DNA of 64,000 bases from Sphingomonas albertensis (GTDB lineage Bacteria; Pseudomonadota; Alphaproteobacteria; Sphingomonadales; Sphingomonadaceae), in the NCBI RefSeq assembly GCF_014358075.1, contig NZ_JACONT010000006.1, positions 1-64,000 of the forward strand. The letters are read 5' to 3'. The translations under genes and the position numbers were made by a program. Position 1 is the first letter of the stretch; the number at the start of each line of letters is the position of its first letter. Shown in pieces: positions 5,563 through 46,038 of this stretch. The notes under the pieces are model-generated. The model did no database searches. It was not told where the DNA came from and saw only the letters and a list, made by a program, of their open reading frames with translations.

Positions 5563-5592
5563 ACGTTGGGGCGAGGCCGATTATCCCCTCTT

Positions 5593-5690
5593 CCGTCATG
5601 CCGGGCTCGTTCCGGCATCCACCGTTCCGCACACTCATCAACGGCGAGTTCGCGGAACGGTGGACCCCGGAACTAGTCCGGGGTGACGGA
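5593..5690. repeat. Long inverted repeat (type C)
   Basis: The sequence is a near-perfect inverted repeat. CCGTCATGCCGG...TCCACCGTTCCGC pairs with GCGGAACGGTGGACCCCGG...GGTGACGG around a spacer of about 20 nt. It is the only clear copy of this type in the window and lies just upstream of the second molybdenum-subunit gene. Confidence 0.7.
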
Positions 5691-14756: not shown

Positions 14757-14873
14757 TTTCTCCCCTCCCTGGAAGGGAGGGGCTGGGGGTGGGTCGGTCC
14801 GCTCGTGCCACTGGCGTCGCGTGATGCGGAAGCCGACCCACCCCCTACCCCTCCCTTCCAGGGAGGGGAGAAG
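14757..14873. repeat. GC-rich inverted repeat (type D)
   Basis: Left arm TCTCCCCTCCCTGGAAGGGA and right arm TCCCTTCCAGGGAGGGGAGA, each followed inward by GGGGGTGGGTCGG and CCGACCCACCCCC. The spacer GCTCGTGCCACTGGCGTCGC is unrelated between copies. Confidence 0.75.
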
Positions 14874-15036: not shown

Positions 15037-15099
15037 CAGCGGGGTTGGTGAGGTCCGCGGAATCTCAGTGGGGTTATCATGCCGTTGATCCCCTACGCC

Positions 15100-15180
15100 G
15101 TTCTCCCGCGAAAGCGGGAGCCCAGGGTTACGAGCGTATCGCTGCTTGATCCTGGGCTCCCGCTTTGGCGGGAGAACGGT
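15100..15180. repeat. GC-rich palindromic repeat (type A)
   Basis: GTTCTCCCGCGAAAGCGGGAGCCCAGG on the left and CCTGGGCTCCCGCTTTGGCGGGAGAAC on the right form a long inverted repeat made of two palindromes. Confidence 0.75.
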
Positions 15181-20529: not shown

Positions 20530-20597
20530 GCTGCAGTGCAGCATTTTGGTTACGGTTGAATCTAGGATCGATTCCCGGAAGGCCACACCCGGCGACA

Positions 20598-20703
20598 ACC
20601 ACCCCGGCGAAGGCCGGGGCCCAATTGGGGGACGGCTGTAACGATGCGCCGTCCGCCATTACTGCGATCTTTCCAATTGGACCCCGGCCTTCGCCGGGGT
20701 GGT
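20598..20703. repeat. Long inverted repeat (type B)
   Basis: CCACCCCGGCGAAGGCCGGGG and CCCCGGCCTTCGCCGGGGTGG arms with CCAATTGGG next to each, around a spacer beginning GGACGGCTGTAACGATGCG. It shares much of this spacer with the copy at 23833-23940. With the MscS promoter it accounts for the gap 20496-20803; no gene is seen. Confidence 0.8.
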
Positions 20704-20803
20704 AATCGTTGACGGCGCAGCGCTTCCCCCGGGAGTAAATCACGCACCGCCCCAAACGATACCCAATGACGCACCGCCCCGATCATGCCAGAACCACCCG
20801 ACC

Positions 20804-37404: not shown

Positions 37405-37481
<77 letters not shown>

Positions 37482-37485
37482 AACT

Positions 37486-38592
37486 TCACTTATTTTCCCC
37501 TAATTTCAACGCCTTAGCGGCATCTTTGGCTAACCTTTCCGCAAGGTTAGCCAGAAGCTTGTCGGCGGCGGTGTCTGAAAGCGTGCGCTGGTCGGCTGCT
37601 GCGGTGTAGCGCGCGACCTCGCTGTCGGTCGTGTGACCGGTCCAGGCCTTGATCTCTTGGTTCGAGCAACCTGCCTCGGCGAATCGCCGCGCGGCGGCCT
37701 TGCGAAGGCCGTGAGCCGAGCAGTTCGGCAAGCCGGCCTCGTCACACCATTGGCGAAATTTGTTGCCGAAACCCTTTACCGAGAATTGCTTGCCGAATTC
37801 GGTGACGACAAAGAACGCGCCTACCGTCGGCGTTGCGAGGATCGATTCCGCCAAGCCGGGCATGATCGGCAGCGACACGAAGACTTTCGTCTTTTCCTGA
37901 GTCAGTTCGAGCCGGGTGTCATGGACGCTGGCCGGACCCATCTTGCGAGCGTCACCGCCGCGCTGGCCCGTCCAGATCATCAGGTCGAACGCAAGGCGCG
38001 CGACCGTACCGATCGGATGGCGCCGTTCGTAAGCCGCGATCTCTTCCTCGGTCCAACTGTGGAACCCTCCGCCGCTAACCTTGAAGGGACGCGTGACGAT
38101 GACCGGGTTCGTGCCGGCCATGCCGATGCGCATGGCGAACTTCATCAGCGCAGAGAGCCGTTTGCGGAGCATGTTCGCAGACGTCCGGTGCGGCAGGAGT
38201 TCCGCAAGCATCGCCTCGACATGACGCGGCTGCAGCTCACGCACCATGATCTCGCCGTAACGCCGCCCCTTGCGCGTCCGCGAACGCCAGCGCTCGAGCG
38301 TTCCCCGATAGACAACGCGCGTACGCTCGCCTGGATCGAGGAAATCCGGCGAGCGATAATAGCGGGAAAGCAGGTCGTCGAACGTCCCGACGGCAGCACG
38401 GTTGGCGCCGACTTCGATCTCCGGGGCGCTAACGCCGTCGTTGCACGCACGCAGCTCTGCGAGAAACGCCTCGGTCCCGGGCTCGTTCTTGAAATAGTAG
38501 GTGACGAAGCCGGTGCGACGATACCGGTAATGAGCCTTACCGTGCCGATCACGAAACGTGCTGACATGCTTCGGTAGCCAACGCCGCTTCAT
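37486..38592 (-). CDS. int: Prophage tyrosine-family integrase
   Basis: This 368-residue site-specific recombinase has an N-terminal SAM-like DNA-binding domain (about residues 60-170) and a catalytic domain with the Arg box (MIWTGQRGGDARKM), AHGLRKAAARRF (H-x-x-R), a GHTTDSEV box and the nucleophile Tyr in VARYTAA. Standing right at tRNA-Arg with its 3' end towards the tRNA, it defines the left prophage end. Its ATG overlaps the stop of a small upstream gene (ATGA), so it is the last gene of the early operon. Confidence 0.94.
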   Translation of the reverse strand: MKRRWLPKHVSTFRDRHGKAHYRYRRTGFVTYYFKNEPGTEAFLAELRACNDGVSAPEIEVGANRAAVGTFDDLLSRYYRSPDFLDPGERTRVVYRGTLERWRSRTRKGRRYGEIMVRELQPRHVEAMLAELLPHRTSANMLRKRLSALMKFAMRIGMAGTNPVIVTRPFKVSGGGFHSWTEEEIAAYERRHPIGTVARLAFDLMIWTGQRGGDARKMGPASVHDTRLELTQEKTKVFVSLPIMPGLAESILATPTVGAFFVVTEFGKQFSVKGFGNKFRQWCDEAGLPNCSAHGLRKAAARRFAEAGCSNQEIKAWTGHTTDSEVARYTAAADQRTLSDTAADKLLANLAERLAKDAAKALKLGENK

Positions 38593-40849: not shown

Positions 40850-41205
40850 GCTCCTGCCCGCTTCAAAACCGGCAATCGATCGAAAGCGACGGATGCGTGA
40901 GTCGCGCCGTATAGATGCGGCATGGCGTTAGCAGGGAGAGGTGGGCGACCGATGCTGATTAATGCGGCAACCGCGTCACGGGGTATTGTATGATCAGGCC
41001 AATTCGCAGGTACCCGAAACCACGAAGCGAACTTTTCCAGATTGGTGACGGAGAAGGTCTTTCCGTCGCGCAACCGGGTGAAAAATGCGCCGCTGCTCAC
41101 GACAATCGTTGCAACTCGCGACAGCGATTTGCCACCCCAGCGGGCGACTTCGGCATCGTACGAGTCGGCGATCGTTCGCAATGCGTTCTGGTATGCAGCG
41201 CTCAT
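40846..41205 (-). CDS. First gene of the prophage early operon, Cro-like candidate
   Basis: This 119-residue protein is the first minus-strand gene after the operator and is divergent from the repressor. The middle (ATIVVSSGAFFTRLRDGKTFSVTNLEKFASWF, in pieces of an HTH) looks like a DNA-binding helix pair that contacts operator DNA and counts the LEKFASWF helix after it, a layout seen in small phage regulators. Its place matches Cro or Cox in other temperate phages. That role is an inference from position. Confidence 0.65.
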   Translation of the reverse strand: MSAAYQNALRTIADSYDAEVARWGGKSLSRVATIVVSSGAFFTRLRDGKTFSVTNLEKFASWFRVPANWPDHTIPRDAVAALISIGRPPLPANAMPHLYGATHASVAFDRLPVLKRAGA

Positions 41206-41210
41206 GACGC

Positions 41211-41250
41211 ATATTTACGTCACATTTGCGGCACCCGTCAACGTAAATAT
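41211..41250. promoter_or_regulatory. Divergent early operator with inverted repeat
   Basis: ATATTTACGT (41211-41220) and ACGTAAATAT (41241-41250) form a perfect 10-nt inverted repeat with a 20-nt spacer between the divergent early gene and repressor gene. The A/T-rich arms stand out from the GC-rich surroundings. ATGCGTCA also repeats directly at about 41264-41280. This is the likely repressor-binding switch region. Confidence 0.7.
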
Positions 41251-41290
41251 TCCGCATGCCATGCGTCACTTCATGCGTCATGAGTGCAGC

Positions 41291-42016
41291 ATGAGAAAGA
41301 ACGTACCTGACGTGTTGAAAGAGCGACTCTCGGCGAAGATTGCCGAGAAGAATATGTCAGCTCGTGAGGTGTCGATTGCGGCCTTGAACAAGCCAGACGC
41401 TATTCGCGCGATCCTGGCTGGCCATATGCCGGGGCTCGACCGGCTCGATGCGATTGCAGATATCCTCGACACAACTTCCGATTGGCTGCTCGGACGCGAT
41501 CAGGGTATTGAACGCACGATCCCGGCGGACGGCCATACAACTCTAGAAGCGCTTCGACGGCTTCCCAAGACGTTGCCCATCTATGGCACAGCGCTCGGTG
41601 CCGACCTGGAATTCGACGGTTGCAACGGGATCGTAGTAACTGTCGAGCAAACAGAGGTGCATATGTCCGCACCCCTTGATTTTATGACTCGGCCGATCGG
41701 CGTCACCGGCAGGCCCGACCTCTACGTCGTCTCGGTATCGGGGCACTCGATGGAGCCGCGATTTGATGCGGGAAGCCGTGTTCTCGTCGATCCTAAGCGG
41801 TCGCCCGGCGTTGGTGATGACGTGGTGGTGCAGTTGCGCGGTCCAACATTTGACGGCGAAGAGATCCGTCACGTCCTAATTAAGCAGTTGGTGCGGCGGC
41901 GCCCAACCGTTGTGATTCTTCGACAGTTCAACCCTGCCGCAGAGTTCGAAGTCCCGAATGAGCAGGTGTCGTCTGTCCATCGGGTGATGCCGTGGGATGA
42001 GGCGATGGGATACTAG
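41291..42016 (+). CDS. LexA/CI-like S24 prophage repressor
   Basis: This 241-residue repressor has an N-terminal HTH domain (VLKERLSAKIAEKNMSARE, with ALNKPDAIRAILAG as recognition region) and a C-terminal S24 peptidase-like domain. The Ser nucleophile is Ser153 in SGHSMEPRF and Lys198 (VLIKQL) is the probable base. The cleavage region reads YGTALGADL; a classical Ala-Gly pair is not seen, so SOS cleavage is uncertain. I use ATG 41291 (MRKNVPD); ATG 41273 adds six residues. It should hold the early operon shut. Confidence 0.87.
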   Translation: MRKNVPDVLKERLSAKIAEKNMSAREVSIAALNKPDAIRAILAGHMPGLDRLDAIADILDTTSDWLLGRDQGIERTIPADGHTTLEALRRLPKTLPIYGTALGADLEFDGCNGIVVTVEQTEVHMSAPLDFMTRPIGVTGRPDLYVVSVSGHSMEPRFDAGSRVLVDPKRSPGVGDDVVVQLRGPTFDGEEIRHVLIKQLVRRRPTVVILRQFNPAAEFEVPNEQVSSVHRVMPWDEAMGY

Positions 42017-42199: not shown

Positions 42200-43531
42200 T
42201 CAAGACAGCGCAGCCAACACGTCTGCCTCAAGGTCTGACACCTCTCGGGCGATGAGCTTATCGAACTGTTCGTCGATAAATTCCGCATTCCTTGCTTCGA
42301 CTTCCGCTAGAGTCTTATCGGTTAGCAATGCGATCGTTTGCGCCTTTTCCGACCGGGTGTAGGTGTCGAAGTTAGGAATATAGCGCGAGGCCTCTCCGAA
42401 ATAGCGAATTTCATGATAACTTCTTAGGAAGGTAGCTTGACCACCTAATACAGATCTGAGCTTCAACCGAGTCATCTGTTGTACAACAAACTTATCCAAC
42501 CGGGCTAGTTGCCCTAAATTCTCTGTCTGGGAGAAAAACATTAGCCATCCACGCCTGCGCCCATCAATGAAGCAGCCGGTTATCCTAAGGTTAAGTTTGA
42601 ATAGCGTCTTTTCCATAGATTTAGAAAATCGAAAAGATGTTAGAACCTTCAATAGGTTGCCAAACATCTTTTTATAGGAAGACGCCCGTATTCCAATGTC
42701 ATCCTTGCTTATTCGGTAACCGAGATAATCAACGCCTTCCGATATTCGTTTCTCTTCGGTCTTACCAGGCACACCTAATGGATGTGGCTTAAGCAAAAGA
42801 GCATTTAATTGCGTAAACAGGCTTATATAGCGTTTATTTATTTCTTGCGAAGGGGCGACGACTAATATGTCGTCGACATATCGATGGTAGATACCTTGCT
42901 TACGTTGTTCGGCATCGAACTCGGACAAATATATTGCGGATAGAATATTCGAGATACTAAGGCCCTGCGGCACGCCAATCGTATTAATTTTACCGGATCG
43001 CCGTATAGCCGTAGGATTTCGGATCGCAGATAATATCAACGTGACCAAAAATGGTTCAGCGCCCGCTTTTACAAGGGCATTGGTAAGCAGTTCGTGATTT
43101 ATAGTCGGGAAAAAGTCTCGAACATCCATGCGTAAAAATGATAGTGGCTCGTCCGATCCCCTGACATGTTTTGCAATAGCCTTCACATGCGCATGAGGCG
43201 GCATGGCGTGCGCATGAGGAGCAAGCACTGACAAACAGTTACAAATTGATCTTAGGGTTAGTCGATCGCGTACCGTAGGAATCGAAAGCTGCCGTGGCAG
43301 TTTTGATGCACCCCGTGAGATAAGCTTCTCTCGGTATCCAGTAAAACCATATAGCGATGAGAAAACCTTCTGCTCGATGATGGATACTTCTGCATCTATT
43401 GATTTACTAAAGTGATTAAGCCTTACGCCGTCCAGTCCAACCGCGCGTGATTTCGTAACATGCCCATCGAATGTTGCCTTGAGCGCATCGGCGGTAAAAA
43501 ATATACGCTGATCCACAGCCGTTAGGTGCAC
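42200..43531 (-). CDS. Reverse transcriptase, defence-type
   Basis: This 443-residue protein has a full RT fold: AVGLDGVRLNHF (motif 0, about 30-41), IPTVRDRLTLRSI (motif 1), RMDVRDFFPTIN with the catalytic Asp136 and Asp139, VPQGLSISNILSAIYL (about 188-201), the catalytic YVDD (218-221), and VDYLGYRIS. A C-terminal region of about 170 residues has ITGCFIDGRRRGWLMFFSQ. There is no maturase or endonuclease domain, so it is not a mobile intron RT. The gene overlaps the SLATT-like gene by 10 nt and is AT-richer than the phage genes around it. RTs of this kind paired with SLATT proteins are predicted defence systems. Confidence 0.9.
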   Translation of the reverse strand: MHLTAVDQRIFFTADALKATFDGHVTKSRAVGLDGVRLNHFSKSIDAEVSIIEQKVFSSLYGFTGYREKLISRGASKLPRQLSIPTVRDRLTLRSICNCLSVLAPHAHAMPPHAHVKAIAKHVRGSDEPLSFLRMDVRDFFPTINHELLTNALVKAGAEPFLVTLILSAIRNPTAIRRSGKINTIGVPQGLSISNILSAIYLSEFDAEQRKQGIYHRYVDDILVVAPSQEINKRYISLFTQLNALLLKPHPLGVPGKTEEKRISEGVDYLGYRISKDDIGIRASSYKKMFGNLLKVLTSFRFSKSMEKTLFKLNLRITGCFIDGRRRGWLMFFSQTENLGQLARLDKFVVQQMTRLKLRSVLGGQATFLRSYHEIRYFGEASRYIPNFDTYTRSEKAQTIALLTDKTLAEVEARNAEFIDEQFDKLIAREVSDLEADVLAALS

Positions 43532-44079
43532 ATAAACGCTACGGGTGGCGCTAAGAAAAGCGCAGCGGTAATGATCCAGGCCGCCAGTCTTCTAGCGATC
43601 TGCGTCGCAACGAGGAGGACGGTAACGGGTATCAAACCGTTGGAATTGCTCACGCGCTGATTTCGTAGCCATCCATCGAAAATAACGCGATCGTTATCGC
43701 TAGTCGAATGATTCGGATAGTGATCTAACAAATCATGGTAAGTAGACAATCGGTTTGCTGCGTCCTTATTCCGATACAACGATTGTAATTTTAGGTAACA
43801 TTCGCGGTACGTACTCGCTCGCTCCTCAAACTTGAACCCTGAAATAACGAGCGACAAGCCGAACGTCAGCACCGATAAAATAATACCGAGATTAGCAGCA
43901 TCAACGTCGCCGATGGCACCACCAATTTTAGACTGATAAACACTAAAAACGATAGACCAGAAAGCATACCACGTTAGCAAAAGGTGACTTATTAGCGCAT
44001 ACGCTCTCAATCGTCGCTCTGAATTTATTCTAGCCTTAGCGGTAAGCCATAAGGGAGCTAGTTCATTACTATCACTCAT
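43522..44079 (-). CDS. SLATT-like two-helix membrane protein
   Basis: This 185-residue protein (MSDSNELAP start) has two close hydrophobic helices (LISHLLLTWYAFWSIVFSVY and ANLGIILSVLTFGLSLVISG), then a conserved amphipathic region (FEERASTYRECYLKLQSLYR) and a third C-terminal hydrophobic segment. This layout matches the SLATT superfamily, predicted pore-forming effectors; the SLATT_5 subfamily is known to be coupled to reverse transcriptases. The ATG at 44079 has CGGAG before it; the open frame to 44118 has no better site. It is co-transcribed with the RT and lies 13 nt after a structured RNA. Confidence 0.78.
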   Translation of the reverse strand: MSDSNELAPLWLTAKARINSERRLRAYALISHLLLTWYAFWSIVFSVYQSKIGGAIGDVDAANLGIILSVLTFGLSLVISGFKFEERASTYRECYLKLQSLYRNKDAANRLSTYHDLLDHYPNHSTSDNDRVIFDGWLRNQRVSNSNGLIPVTVLLVATQIARRLAAWIITAALFLAPPVAFMCT

Positions 44080-44092
44080 CGCGACTCCGGGT

Positions 44093-44217
44093 GTGCGGGC
44101 ATAAGTAAATGAAAGCAACTACGCCCTCTTTCGAAGGCAGCACGAGCTAAGGTTTCCCTTGGTCGATAAGAATAGCCCGTAAGAGCTGATGCGACGAATG
44201 TCGCATCATGCCCGCAC
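44093..44217 (-). ncRNA. Candidate structured RNA of the RT-SLATT cassette
   Basis: Read on the minus strand, the 125-nt segment begins GTGCGGGCAT (44217-44208) and ends ATGCCCGCAC (44102-44093), a perfect 10-bp closing stem. Inside are three hairpins: GATGCGAC-ATTC-GTCGCATC (44207-44188), AAGG-GAAA-CCTT (44160-44149) and GCCTTC-GAAA-GAGGGC (44138-44123), the last two with GNRA-type GAAA loops. It lies directly upstream of the SLATT and RT genes. Several RT-based defence systems and retrons use such an RNA as template or primer. A 5' leader regulatory structure is an alternative. Upstream TTGTAT and TACGGT could be a weak promoter. Confidence 0.65.
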
Positions 44218-44632: not shown

Positions 44633-45643
44633 CTACGCTGCGCTCTCCAGCGTTAGGGCCGTCGTGAAACCGCGATCGGCGATCAGTTCGTGAGAGACAT
44701 CGGAAACCAGCCACTTCACCGCATCAATCTCAGCCTTGAACCCCGCAACCGTCACCGGGCGGTCAGGGTAAATTTCCAACCGGCCGAGGGCGAGCCCCAG
44801 ATCCAGCGTGCGCGGCTCGCGTGCGGCACGGCCCTGCTCGGCAGTCGCGGCGCGGCGGGCGGCATCCTCGGACGAGTAGGTGCGCGTGAGCCGCTTAGTC
44901 TCGCCGGTACCGCTGCCGACCGTTACCGTTTTCTTCTTCGCACCCTTGCGGTCGTGCCAGTCGGCCGAGACGCTGCCGGCCTCGTCGCGCTTCTTGATCC
45001 GAAAGCTATGACGATCGCCATCGCCGCGCCGGATAGTGAGCGCGGGGATCGCCGCGCCGGTCGCGGTCGTGGCGGCGCCGGTGGGCGCGAGGATCAGCAC
45101 GCCGGCCTTCACCGTCGCCGTGGCGTCGTTCTCCCGCCCCAGCCGGCGCAGGAGCGCAATGTCGCTTTCCCGGGTCTGTGCCATCGCCTTGACTGCAATC
45201 GACGCCAGTGCGGGCGCGCAGCGGGGCGTCAGCTTGTTACGGCCGGCGATCTCCCTGACGATCGCGCCCAGCGTCGTGTCGTGCCAGCTCTTCTCGCGCC
45301 GGATGGCGATGGCGCTGGTGAAGTCCGCCGCGCGTGCGCGGATCGTGATCTGGTCGGGCGGGCCGCTATGCTCGATCTCGTCGACGGTAAATTTGCCCTT
45401 GTCGACCAGGCCGACCGTCACGTCGGCGCCGGCGGACCAGCCGAGCTGTACCGTCAGCGTCGCGCCAGCACGCGGCACCGCGAGCTTGCCATCCGAATCG
45501 TCGATCGTGATCTCGAGCTGGTCGGCGTCGCCGCCTCGTTTCTCGCTCAAGCGCAGCGAGATCAGGCGCGGACGAATGCGATCGGTCAGATCGGTGCCAT
45601 CGAGCGTGACCTTGAAGTCGGGGACGTTGTTGACCGCCGTCAT
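44633..45643 (-). CDS. D: P2-like late control protein D (tail hub/spike base)
   Basis: This 336-residue protein is of the phage late control gene D family, which forms the tail hub, like T4 gp27. Landmarks are the N-terminal DLTDRIRPRLISLRLSEKRGGDADQLEITIDD and a C-terminal RPVTVAGFKAEIDAVKWLVSDVSH. Length and place (last gene of the tail operon) match P2 D. The ATG overlaps the gpU stop (ATGA). It is the last late gene before the cargo island. Confidence 0.93.
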   Translation of the reverse strand: MTAVNNVPDFKVTLDGTDLTDRIRPRLISLRLSEKRGGDADQLEITIDDSDGKLAVPRAGATLTVQLGWSAGADVTVGLVDKGKFTVDEIEHSGPPDQITIRARAADFTSAIAIRREKSWHDTTLGAIVREIAGRNKLTPRCAPALASIAVKAMAQTRESDIALLRRLGRENDATATVKAGVLILAPTGAATTATGAAIPALTIRRGDGDRHSFRIKKRDEAGSVSADWHDRKGAKKKTVTVGSGTGETKRLTRTYSSEDAARRAATAEQGRAAREPRTLDLGLALGRLEIYPDRPVTVAGFKAEIDAVKWLVSDVSHELIADRGFTTALTLESAA

Positions 45644-46038
45644 GCCGCACCCGCCGCGCTATCGGCGATCTCGAGCAGCTCGACGGTGAAGTCGACCTTC
45701 CGCGGCGTGCCGTCCGCAAAGAACTCCTTCATGCCTTCGTCGATGCCGGTGATGACAAAGGCGCCGTAGACCCGCCCGGTGCCGTCGATCAGCGGCCACG
45801 CCTCGCCCTTGGCCGCCATGTCGCGCAGATCGTCAAGCGAAGCGCGCCCCGCCATGAGTTCGGCATAGGCCGTGCCCGACAAGCCAATCGTATCGTTCTC
45901 GCGGCCGACGAACTGCGTCGCGTCGATCGCGCCGATCCGGCCGCTCCTCGCGTGCCGCCAGGCGCTTTTGCGCTGCATCTCCTGATATGCCAGCGTCGGC
46001 AGCGAGAAGACGAACATGCCGAGGGCCATCATGTTCAC
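45640..46038 (-). CDS. U: P2-like tail protein U
   Basis: This 132-residue protein is of the phage P2 GpU family, which caps or terminates the tail tube. MALGMFVFSLPTLAYQEMQRKSAWRHA at the N-terminus and VYGAFVITGIDEGMKEFFADGTPRKVDFTVEL in the second half are the family pattern. It overlaps both the tape-measure stop and the gpD start by 4 nt, as usual for this module. Confidence 0.93.
   Translation of the reverse strand: MNMMALGMFVFSLPTLAYQEMQRKSAWRHARSGRIGAIDATQFVGRENDTIGLSGTAYAELMAGRASLDDLRDMAAKGEAWPLIDGTGRVYGAFVITGIDEGMKEFFADGTPRKVDFTVELLEIADSAAGAA

What the first reader, a model, noticed from the sequence alone, without database searches (positions are those of the whole stretch)
44093..44217. 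Highly structured 125-nt candidate RNA just upstream of the SLATT-RT genes
A perfect 10-nt inverted repeat (GTGCGGGCAT / ATGCCCGCAC) closes a segment holding three hairpins, one with an 8-bp perfect stem and two with GAAA (GNRA-type) tetraloops. Such density of perfect stems in non-coding DNA is unlikely by chance. A stem between RNA ends next to an RT recalls retron a1/a2 or DRT-associated RNAs, but the RT lacks clear retron signatures.
Basis: partly seen in the sequence, partly recalled or inferred. Interest (0 to 1): 0.85.

Follow-up and report, generated by a model that had tools for sequence, protein, structure and literature searches.

The report
DRT10 antiphage template RNA in prophage
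The structured RNA next to the reverse transcriptase is very probably the template RNA of a bacterial antiphage system called DRT10, whose enzyme makes repeated DNA in a telomerase-like way; here it lies in a prophage, and it is a new example of a recently described kind of system.

Summary
On the minus strand, 44217-44093 folds far better than shuffles (z -7.0): a perfect 10-bp closing stem around four clear hairpins and a 20-nt loop. It is conserved as RNA: aligned with five relatives, 18 of 31 pairs show compensatory changes, and a model of these six finds a seventh, held-out locus. The RT is not a retron RT but UG17 (430.8 bits), its partner is RTasSLATT/SLATT_5, and UG17 + SLATT + a ncRNA upstream of SLATT is DRT10 (preprint PMC12632851). 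The RT has YVDD and ends in serine, the reported priming residue. I infer that the RNA templates tandem-repeat cDNA; the best-placed template is UUGCUUUCA with UU as realignment site (repeat TGAAAGCAA). That register is unproven: A-B-A' is highly significant in Eco3-like and related RNAs, but not in the window's class (p = 0.36, seven loops). The window's RNA is a sequence class apart from Eco3-like ncRNAs. It lies in a prophage, between P2-like tail genes and an S24-type gene. Verdict: new member of a known kind.

The parts
44093..44217 (-). DRT10-type ncRNA (core; true ends unknown, Eco3DRT10's RNA is 137 nt)
   Evidence: fold z -7.0; covariation; model R1 114 bits (a training sequence), only match at E <= 10 in its genome, 150 of 431 first-look candidates scored
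44208..44217 (-). closing stem, 5' arm GUGCGGGCAU
   Evidence: helix 1: 5 of 11 pairs with compensatory change
44188..44207 (-). hairpin 1, GAUGCGAC-AUUC-GUCGCAUC, 8 bp perfect
   Evidence: helix 2: 5 of 5 pairs with compensatory change
44174..44187 (-). hairpin 2, AGCUC-UUAC-GGGCU
   Evidence: helix 3: 2 of 5 pairs with compensatory change
44149..44160 (-). hairpin 3, AAGG-GAAA-CCUU
   Evidence: helix 4: 3 of 3 pairs with compensatory change, 83% of cells paired
44123..44138 (-). last hairpin, GCCUUC-GAAA-GAGGGC; placed like SL5 of Eco3DRT10, the proposed 5' template boundary
   Evidence: helix 5: 3 of 7 pairs with compensatory change, 83% of cells paired
44103..44122 (-). template loop GUAGUUGCUUUCAUUUACUU
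   Evidence: position between the last hairpin and the closing arm as in DRT10
44110..44118 (-). best-placed template A-B = UU-GCUUUCA (predicted cDNA repeat TGAAAGCAA); A' = UU at 44108-44109
   Evidence: inference from position after the last hairpin and from the aligned loops of L037, L004, L030, L005; not significant statistically
44093..44102 (-). closing stem, 3' arm AUGCCCGCAC
43522..44079 (-). SLATT protein, 185 aa (ATG; GGAG ribosome-binding site at 44085-44088, read from the sequence)
   Evidence: RTasSLATT 185.2 bits, SLATT_5
42200..43531 (-). UG17 reverse transcriptase, 443 aa (GTG start as listed), YVDD at 218, C-terminal S443; overlaps the SLATT gene by 10 nt
   Evidence: RT_UG17 430.8 bits

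Best explanation
This is the noncoding RNA of a DRT10 antiphage system carried by a P2-like prophage. The RNA binds the UG17 RT. The RT starts DNA on its own C-terminal serine (S443), copies a short template in the loop just 3' of the last hairpin (SL5), stops at SL5, lets the new DNA slip back onto a short matching stretch downstream (A'), and copies again, giving long single-stranded tandem-repeat DNA. That DNA is thought to control the SLATT membrane protein (the authors' proposal). Shown here: the gene set, the conserved covarying RNA, its place, the C-terminal serine, one copy in the genome. Inferred from the characterised E. coli systems: RNA binding, priming, repeat synthesis, defence. 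Predicted only: repeat TGAAAGCAA (9 nt); shorter or 10-nt registers are possible because the loop holds several U-runs.
For: RT_UG17 430.8 bits and RTasSLATT 185.2 bits. DRT10 = UG17 + SLATT + ncRNA directly upstream of SLATT, large central stem with four smaller stem-loops, template loop after SL5 (PMC12632851). Same layout here and in six relatives. Covariation, window plus five relatives: 18 of 31 pairs, 93.9% of cells paired against 33-53% when slid. R1 finds held-out L005 at 56.8 bits; best of 80 control loci sharing a closing-stem pattern 21.2 bits. With filters off, R1's best hit is the ncRNA site in 9 of 14 DRT10 loci of other RNA classes and in two near-identical E. coli loci with a 444-aa, Tyr-ending RT. 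C-terminal residue Ser in 36 and Tyr in 5 of 46 UG17 RTs that differ in their last 250 residues, window included.
Against: A-B-A' is not above chance in the window's RNA class (7 loops): mean repeat 2.14 nt against 1.96 in shuffles, p = 0.36; unrestricted search p = 0.79. One of five covariation measures, further pair types, is no better than shuffles (31 against 30.2, 224 of 500). The Eco3-like model R2, which I rebuilt, does not hit the window at E <= 10, and R1 with default filters hits no DRT10 locus outside its own class. No promoter-like site was found (0.6 expected by chance). No transcript, binding or cDNA data for this locus.
Confidence: 0.9

Rival explanations
1. The RNA is a cis-acting leader (attenuator or translational switch) that controls SLATT-RT expression and is not an RT template.
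For: It ends only 13 nt before the SLATT ATG (sequence); three terminator-like matches in the 601 bases scanned, all inside the RNA, against 0.3 expected; no promoter-like site found for a separate transcript.
Against: The same place holds the RT-bound ncRNA in three E. coli DRT10 systems by RIP-seq (PMC12632851). The terminator-like hits have only broken T-runs; two of the three coincide with conserved hairpins. A strong fold directly before SLATT is also seen where the RT gene comes first (not verified as the ncRNA).
Confidence: 0.06
2. A retron: the closing stem is a1/a2 and the RNA is an msr-msd.
For: RNA ends pair next to an RT; NCBIfam retron_St85_RT matches at 41.4 bits, far below its cut-off of 235.
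Against: RT_UG17 430.8 bits; no NAxxH or VTG motif (motifs recalled); no Rfam match.
Confidence: 0.01
3. It is a DRT10 RNA, but the template register differs: UUUCA (repeat TGAAA, 5 nt) or CUUUCAUUUA (repeat TAAATGAAAG, 10 nt), or a mixture. (A variant within the best explanation, so its odds overlap with it.)
For: UUU and CUU give 3-nt A/A' matches in the loop, longer than the 2-nt UU of the preferred register (read from the loop). Eco1DRT10 shows imprecise repeats because of a cryptic site.
Against: Their A segments start 6-8 nt after the last hairpin, whereas Eco3's starts 3 nt after it (L053 loop). In the position-limited search the relatives L037, L004 and L005 put A right after (T/A)AG, as in the preferred register.
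Confidence: 0.35

Closest known systems
Eco3DRT10 and Eco3-like relatives (UG17 + SLATT + ncRNA; PMC12632851)
   Same: Gene set, order ncRNA-SLATT-RT, YVDD, C-terminal Ser, RNA architecture (closing stem, four hairpins, loop after the last). L053 carries the published Eco3 template.
   Different: RNA sequence class: models R1 and R2 do not find each other's members with default filters; A-A' match 2 nt instead of 4; RT 33-34% identical to the six Eco3-like members in alignment A8.
E. coli locus L243/L244, probably Eco1DRT10-like (444-aa RT ending in Tyr, tyrosine recombinase beside it)
   Same: Same operon; R1's best hit lies at the ncRNA site, though weak (11.8 bits, E 0.06, filters off).
   Different: C-terminal Tyr instead of Ser; sits by a tRNA-Arg with an Ogr/Delta-like gene. 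That it is Eco1 is inferred from length and last residue.
DRT9 (SenDRT9)
   Same: Class 2 UG RT with a similarly shaped ncRNA (stated in PMC12632851); structure match Z 22.4, 3.4 A over 359 residues.
   Different: Poly-U template, poly-A product; Drt9 model scores 55.1 bits here against 430.8 for UG17.
Telomerase (TERT + TR)
   Same: Repeat addition from a short RNA template with a boundary element and realignment (PMC12632851).
   Different: Primes on DNA ends, has further domains, serves chromosome maintenance.

Membership tests
DRT10 | RT belongs to UG17 | tested here: met
   RT_UG17 430.8 bits over residues 11-438; next model 102.8
DRT10 | adjacent SLATT protein | tested here: met
   RTasSLATT 185.2 bits, Pfam SLATT_5 88.2; gene upstream, 10-nt overlap
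DRT10 | structured ncRNA in the intergenic stretch upstream of SLATT: central stem with four stem-loops | tested here: met
   as sequence and structure; transcription not tested
DRT10 | stable stem-loop immediately before the template loop | tested here: met
   GCCUUC-GAAA-GAGGGC at 44138-44123; 3 of 7 pairs of helix 5 covary
DRT10 | A-B-A' pattern in the template loop | tested here: inconclusive
   UU-GCUUUCA-UU present, but the class is not above shuffles (p 0.36, 7 loops); 15 distinct loops of Eco3-like and related RNAs are (0 of 5000)
DRT10 | C-terminal Ser (or Tyr) as priming residue | tested here: met
   presence only: S443 is the last residue; Ser 36, Tyr 5, Lys 3, Gly 2 of 46 UG17 RTs. 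Its role was not tested
DRT10 | RT binds the ncRNA, makes tandem-repeat cDNA, gives phage defence | not testable with these tools
   needs RIP-seq, cDNA sequencing, plaque assays
Eco3-like DRT10 ncRNA class | match to an Eco3-like covariance model | tested here: not met
   R2, rebuilt here from 7 sequences, has no window match at E <= 10; the authors' own models were not available
Retron | retron RT signatures NAxxH and VTG | tested here: not met
   neither motif in the 443 aa (motifs recalled)
Retron | msr-msd RNA | tested here: inconclusive
   no Rfam match at gathering score or at E <= 5; not all retron RNAs are in Rfam

The most novel reading that the evidence does not exclude
The window and its relatives hold a separate DRT10 RNA class in which the template core is partly conserved (GCUUUCA or a close variant in four of seven loops) and the realignment match is only 1-3 nt, so that the enzyme either resets on almost no homology or makes a conserved, irregular or non-tandem product that its SLATT protein recognises by sequence.
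Probability: 0.2. Interest if true: 0.6.

Novelty: new member of a known kind. Interest (0 to 1): 0.4.

Why it matters
DRT10 is a recently described bacterial system that makes telomere-like repeats, and how its DNA serves defence is open. The window adds a prophage-borne member with its RNA delimited by covariation. Its RNA class has a short A-A' match and a partly conserved template core, which makes two open points testable: how little homology template resetting needs, and whether the product's sequence matters to SLATT.

Tried and rejected
Rfam: only a tRNA in the whole window and nothing at E <= 5 around the RNA. Retron and group II intron readings: rejected by the UG17 score. Genome-contig scan with the single RT: 2 distant RTs only. 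Phage collection: 25 records with RT matches, all under 60% identity, one covering 80% of the RT at 22.1%; no DNA match. SL5 pattern scan: the window's and L037's contigs plus one phage contig (L239) without an R1 match and without an RT among its listed ORFs; a second pattern found nothing. Scan with L021's RT: one distant RT. Genus searches: no new locus (3 and 41 genomes). E. coli searches with L060 and L056: no match. L005 was first given the wrong stem, was left out of the training set, and was placed by R1 at 762-878. L038, L039, L213 and L214 are cut off before the RNA site and gave no R1 match. In one search some further loci gave stems that later proved to be wrong choices (L050, L052, L062), so that listing was not counted. 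Telomerase is not among the 50 rows shown for the RT model; this says nothing either way. Host: a host stretch of the window matches plasmid records best in Sphingomonas (73.9% over 17% of the query) but also many other genera, so 'alphaproteobacterium, perhaps a sphingomonad' is a guess.

Papers: PMC12632851, abstract, sections 4, 6, 7, 8, 10 and part 1 of section 15 read; section 9 and supplements not. PMC8934634 and PMC13174585, passages only. PMC12483538, search listing only. Searches of print: (capped listings). Whether this very locus is in the authors' tables was not checked.

Full report
Observation. The segment 44093-44217, read on the minus strand (the strand of SLATT and RT), folds at -56.3 kcal/mol with z -7.0 against dinucleotide shuffles; the plus strand is less stable. 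There are four clear hairpins, two with GAAA loops, and then a 20-nt stretch GUAGUUGCUUUCAUUUACUU before the 3' closing arm. The closing stem alone would not be remarkable: 34 start positions of such 10-nt repeats occur in the window, against 4-18 in 20 block-shuffled copies. Fifteen of 2062 scanned 125-nt windows reach or exceed it in energy excess; the 12 listed lie at six places, and the four places I looked at hold long palindromes.

What the genes are. The RT (42200-43531, minus) matches PADLOC RT_UG17 with 430.8 bits over nearly its whole length; the next best model has 102.8. The upstream protein (43522-44079, minus, 185 aa) is RTasSLATT (185.2 bits) and SLATT_5. UG17 RTs with a neighbouring SLATT and a ncRNA were named DRT10 in the preprint PMC12632851. 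That work reports a 137-nt RNA directly upstream of SLATT with a central stem and four smaller stem-loops; a template loop just after SL5; an A-B-A' pattern that lets the cDNA slip back; protein priming from a C-terminal Ser (Eco3 S456) or probably Tyr (Eco1 Y444); and defence that needs RNA, RT and SLATT. An earlier survey found SLATT_5 with 82% of UG17 RTs (PMC8934634, passages).

Relatives. The window's RT is in an IMG/VR viral contig of 38,160 bases (L036, 100% identity). The closest other RT is L037 (53%). UG17 hits above 430 bits are rare: 3 of 397 genomes searched in the window's family, own included.

The RNA is conserved. A MAFFT sequence alignment of the window with L037, L004, L021, L030 and L212 gives one consensus structure with 31 pairs; 18 pairs have compensatory changes, in all five helices. 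93.9% of cells are standard pairs, against 33-53% when the partners are slid by 1-3 columns. No shuffle of 500 reached the observed compensatory pairs, compensatory cells, percentage paired or covariation score; the fifth measure, further pair types, was no better than shuffles (224 of 500). The structure was derived from the same alignment, so the percentage leans in its favour; the compensatory counts are the stronger point. The covariance model R1 finds an untrained seventh locus, L005, at 56.8 bits directly upstream of its SLATT gene. Among 80 control contigs chosen for carrying a matching closing stem the best score is 21.2 bits, and the window's genome gave one match at E <= 10 (150 of 431 first-look candidates scored).

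Relation to the E. coli RNAs. L053 holds the published Eco3 template and, with six relatives, gave model R2. With default filters R1 finds no RNA outside its class among the 60 sources and R2 finds neither the window nor its class at E <= 10. With filters off, R1's best hit is the ncRNA site in 9 of 14 loci of other classes (L031, L060, L063, L064, L217, L054, L065, L053, L032), a lower-ranked hit in two (L033, L055) and not listed in three (L057, L058, L059); most of these scores are weak on their own (best 23.7 bits, E 0.0005). It is also the best hit, at 11.8 bits, in two near-identical E. coli loci whose 444-aa RT ends in Tyr. I read this as one architecture with several sequence classes. 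I could not compare with the authors' Eco1-like and Eco2-like models, so the window's class may already be among them.

Template. In the Eco3-like and related set the A-B-A' pattern at the expected place is unmistakable: mean match 3.73 nt over 15 distinct loops, against 1.94 in shuffles (0 of 5000). In the window's class it is not: 2.14 against 1.96 over 7 loops, p = 0.36, and p = 0.79 without the position limit. By position, the window reads (UAG) UU-GCUUUCA-UU, L037 (AAG) AU-GCUUUCA-AU, L004 (UAG) AU-GCUUCCAA-AU, L030 GUU-GCUUUGA-GUU and L005 (UAG) UGU-UACAU-UGU: A differs among these and A' follows it, but the pairs were picked by the search, so this is no independent test. L021 (UA, 8-nt unit, other start) and L212 (1 nt only) do not fit well. 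Eco1 and Eco2 are reported to work with 2-nt A segments, so a UU match is within the known range, but the 9-nt repeat TGAAAGCAA is a prediction only.

Protein. YVDD lies at residue 218 and the last residue is S443. Of 46 UG17 RTs that differ in their last 250 residues, 36 end in Ser, 5 in Tyr, 3 in Lys and 2 in Gly. The AlphaFold model is good (mean pLDDT 91.2) and its best-scoring matches are group II intron, DGR, G2L4 and DRT9 RTs; where the serine lies relative to YVDD was not measured, since no coordinates were available. No match among solved structures is named UG17 or DRT10; the best single-sequence match is 48.9 bits.

Setting. The operon lies between P2-like tail genes (GPD at 44633-45643, GpU at 45640-46038) and an S24-peptidase (repressor-like) gene (41042-42016), with an integrase at 37486-38592 beside a tRNA-Arg. 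GpU has matches in 312 phage records, Peduovirus P2 among those listed. It is therefore probably phage-borne cargo used against competing phages (inference).

Verdict. The finding is real and most probably the template RNA of a DRT10 system: a known kind, a new member, in an RNA class that deserves a cDNA experiment.

Noticed in passing
L008, L009, L070, L072, L073, L089: UG17 loci with the RT gene first and SLATT downstream; a strong fold lies before SLATT, so the ncRNA-SLATT order may be kept while the RT has moved (not verified as the ncRNA). RT scores are 329-371 against my profile, apart from most others. In one search these end in Gly (L008, L089), Lys (L072, L073), Ser (L009) and Tyr (L219, the same contig as L070).
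   Followed up: partly
window 14758-14872, 15098-15179, 5592-5690, 20593-20708: Long imperfect palindromes (29-45-nt arms), some sharing CACCCCGGCG...CGCCGGGGTG; they fold better than the RNA and look like dispersed host repeats.
   Followed up: no
L243/L244: E. coli DRT10 with a 444-aa Tyr-ending RT beside a tRNA-Arg, a tyrosine recombinase (pseudogene in L244) and an Ogr/Delta-like gene, as in a P4-like satellite.
   Followed up: partly
L040-L053; A place covering at least 80% of the L046 query (Eco3-type DRT10) is in 185 of 5426 complete E. coli genomes; the four such rows shown list a DinI-like gene, and one (NZ_CP082087.1) an IS2-type transposase inside the matched stretch.
   Followed up: no
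L074, L076: UG17 RT genes split into two open frames, apparently decayed copies.
   Followed up: no
window 37405-38592: tRNA-Arg directly followed by a tyrosine integrase gene: a likely attachment end of the prophage.
   Followed up: no
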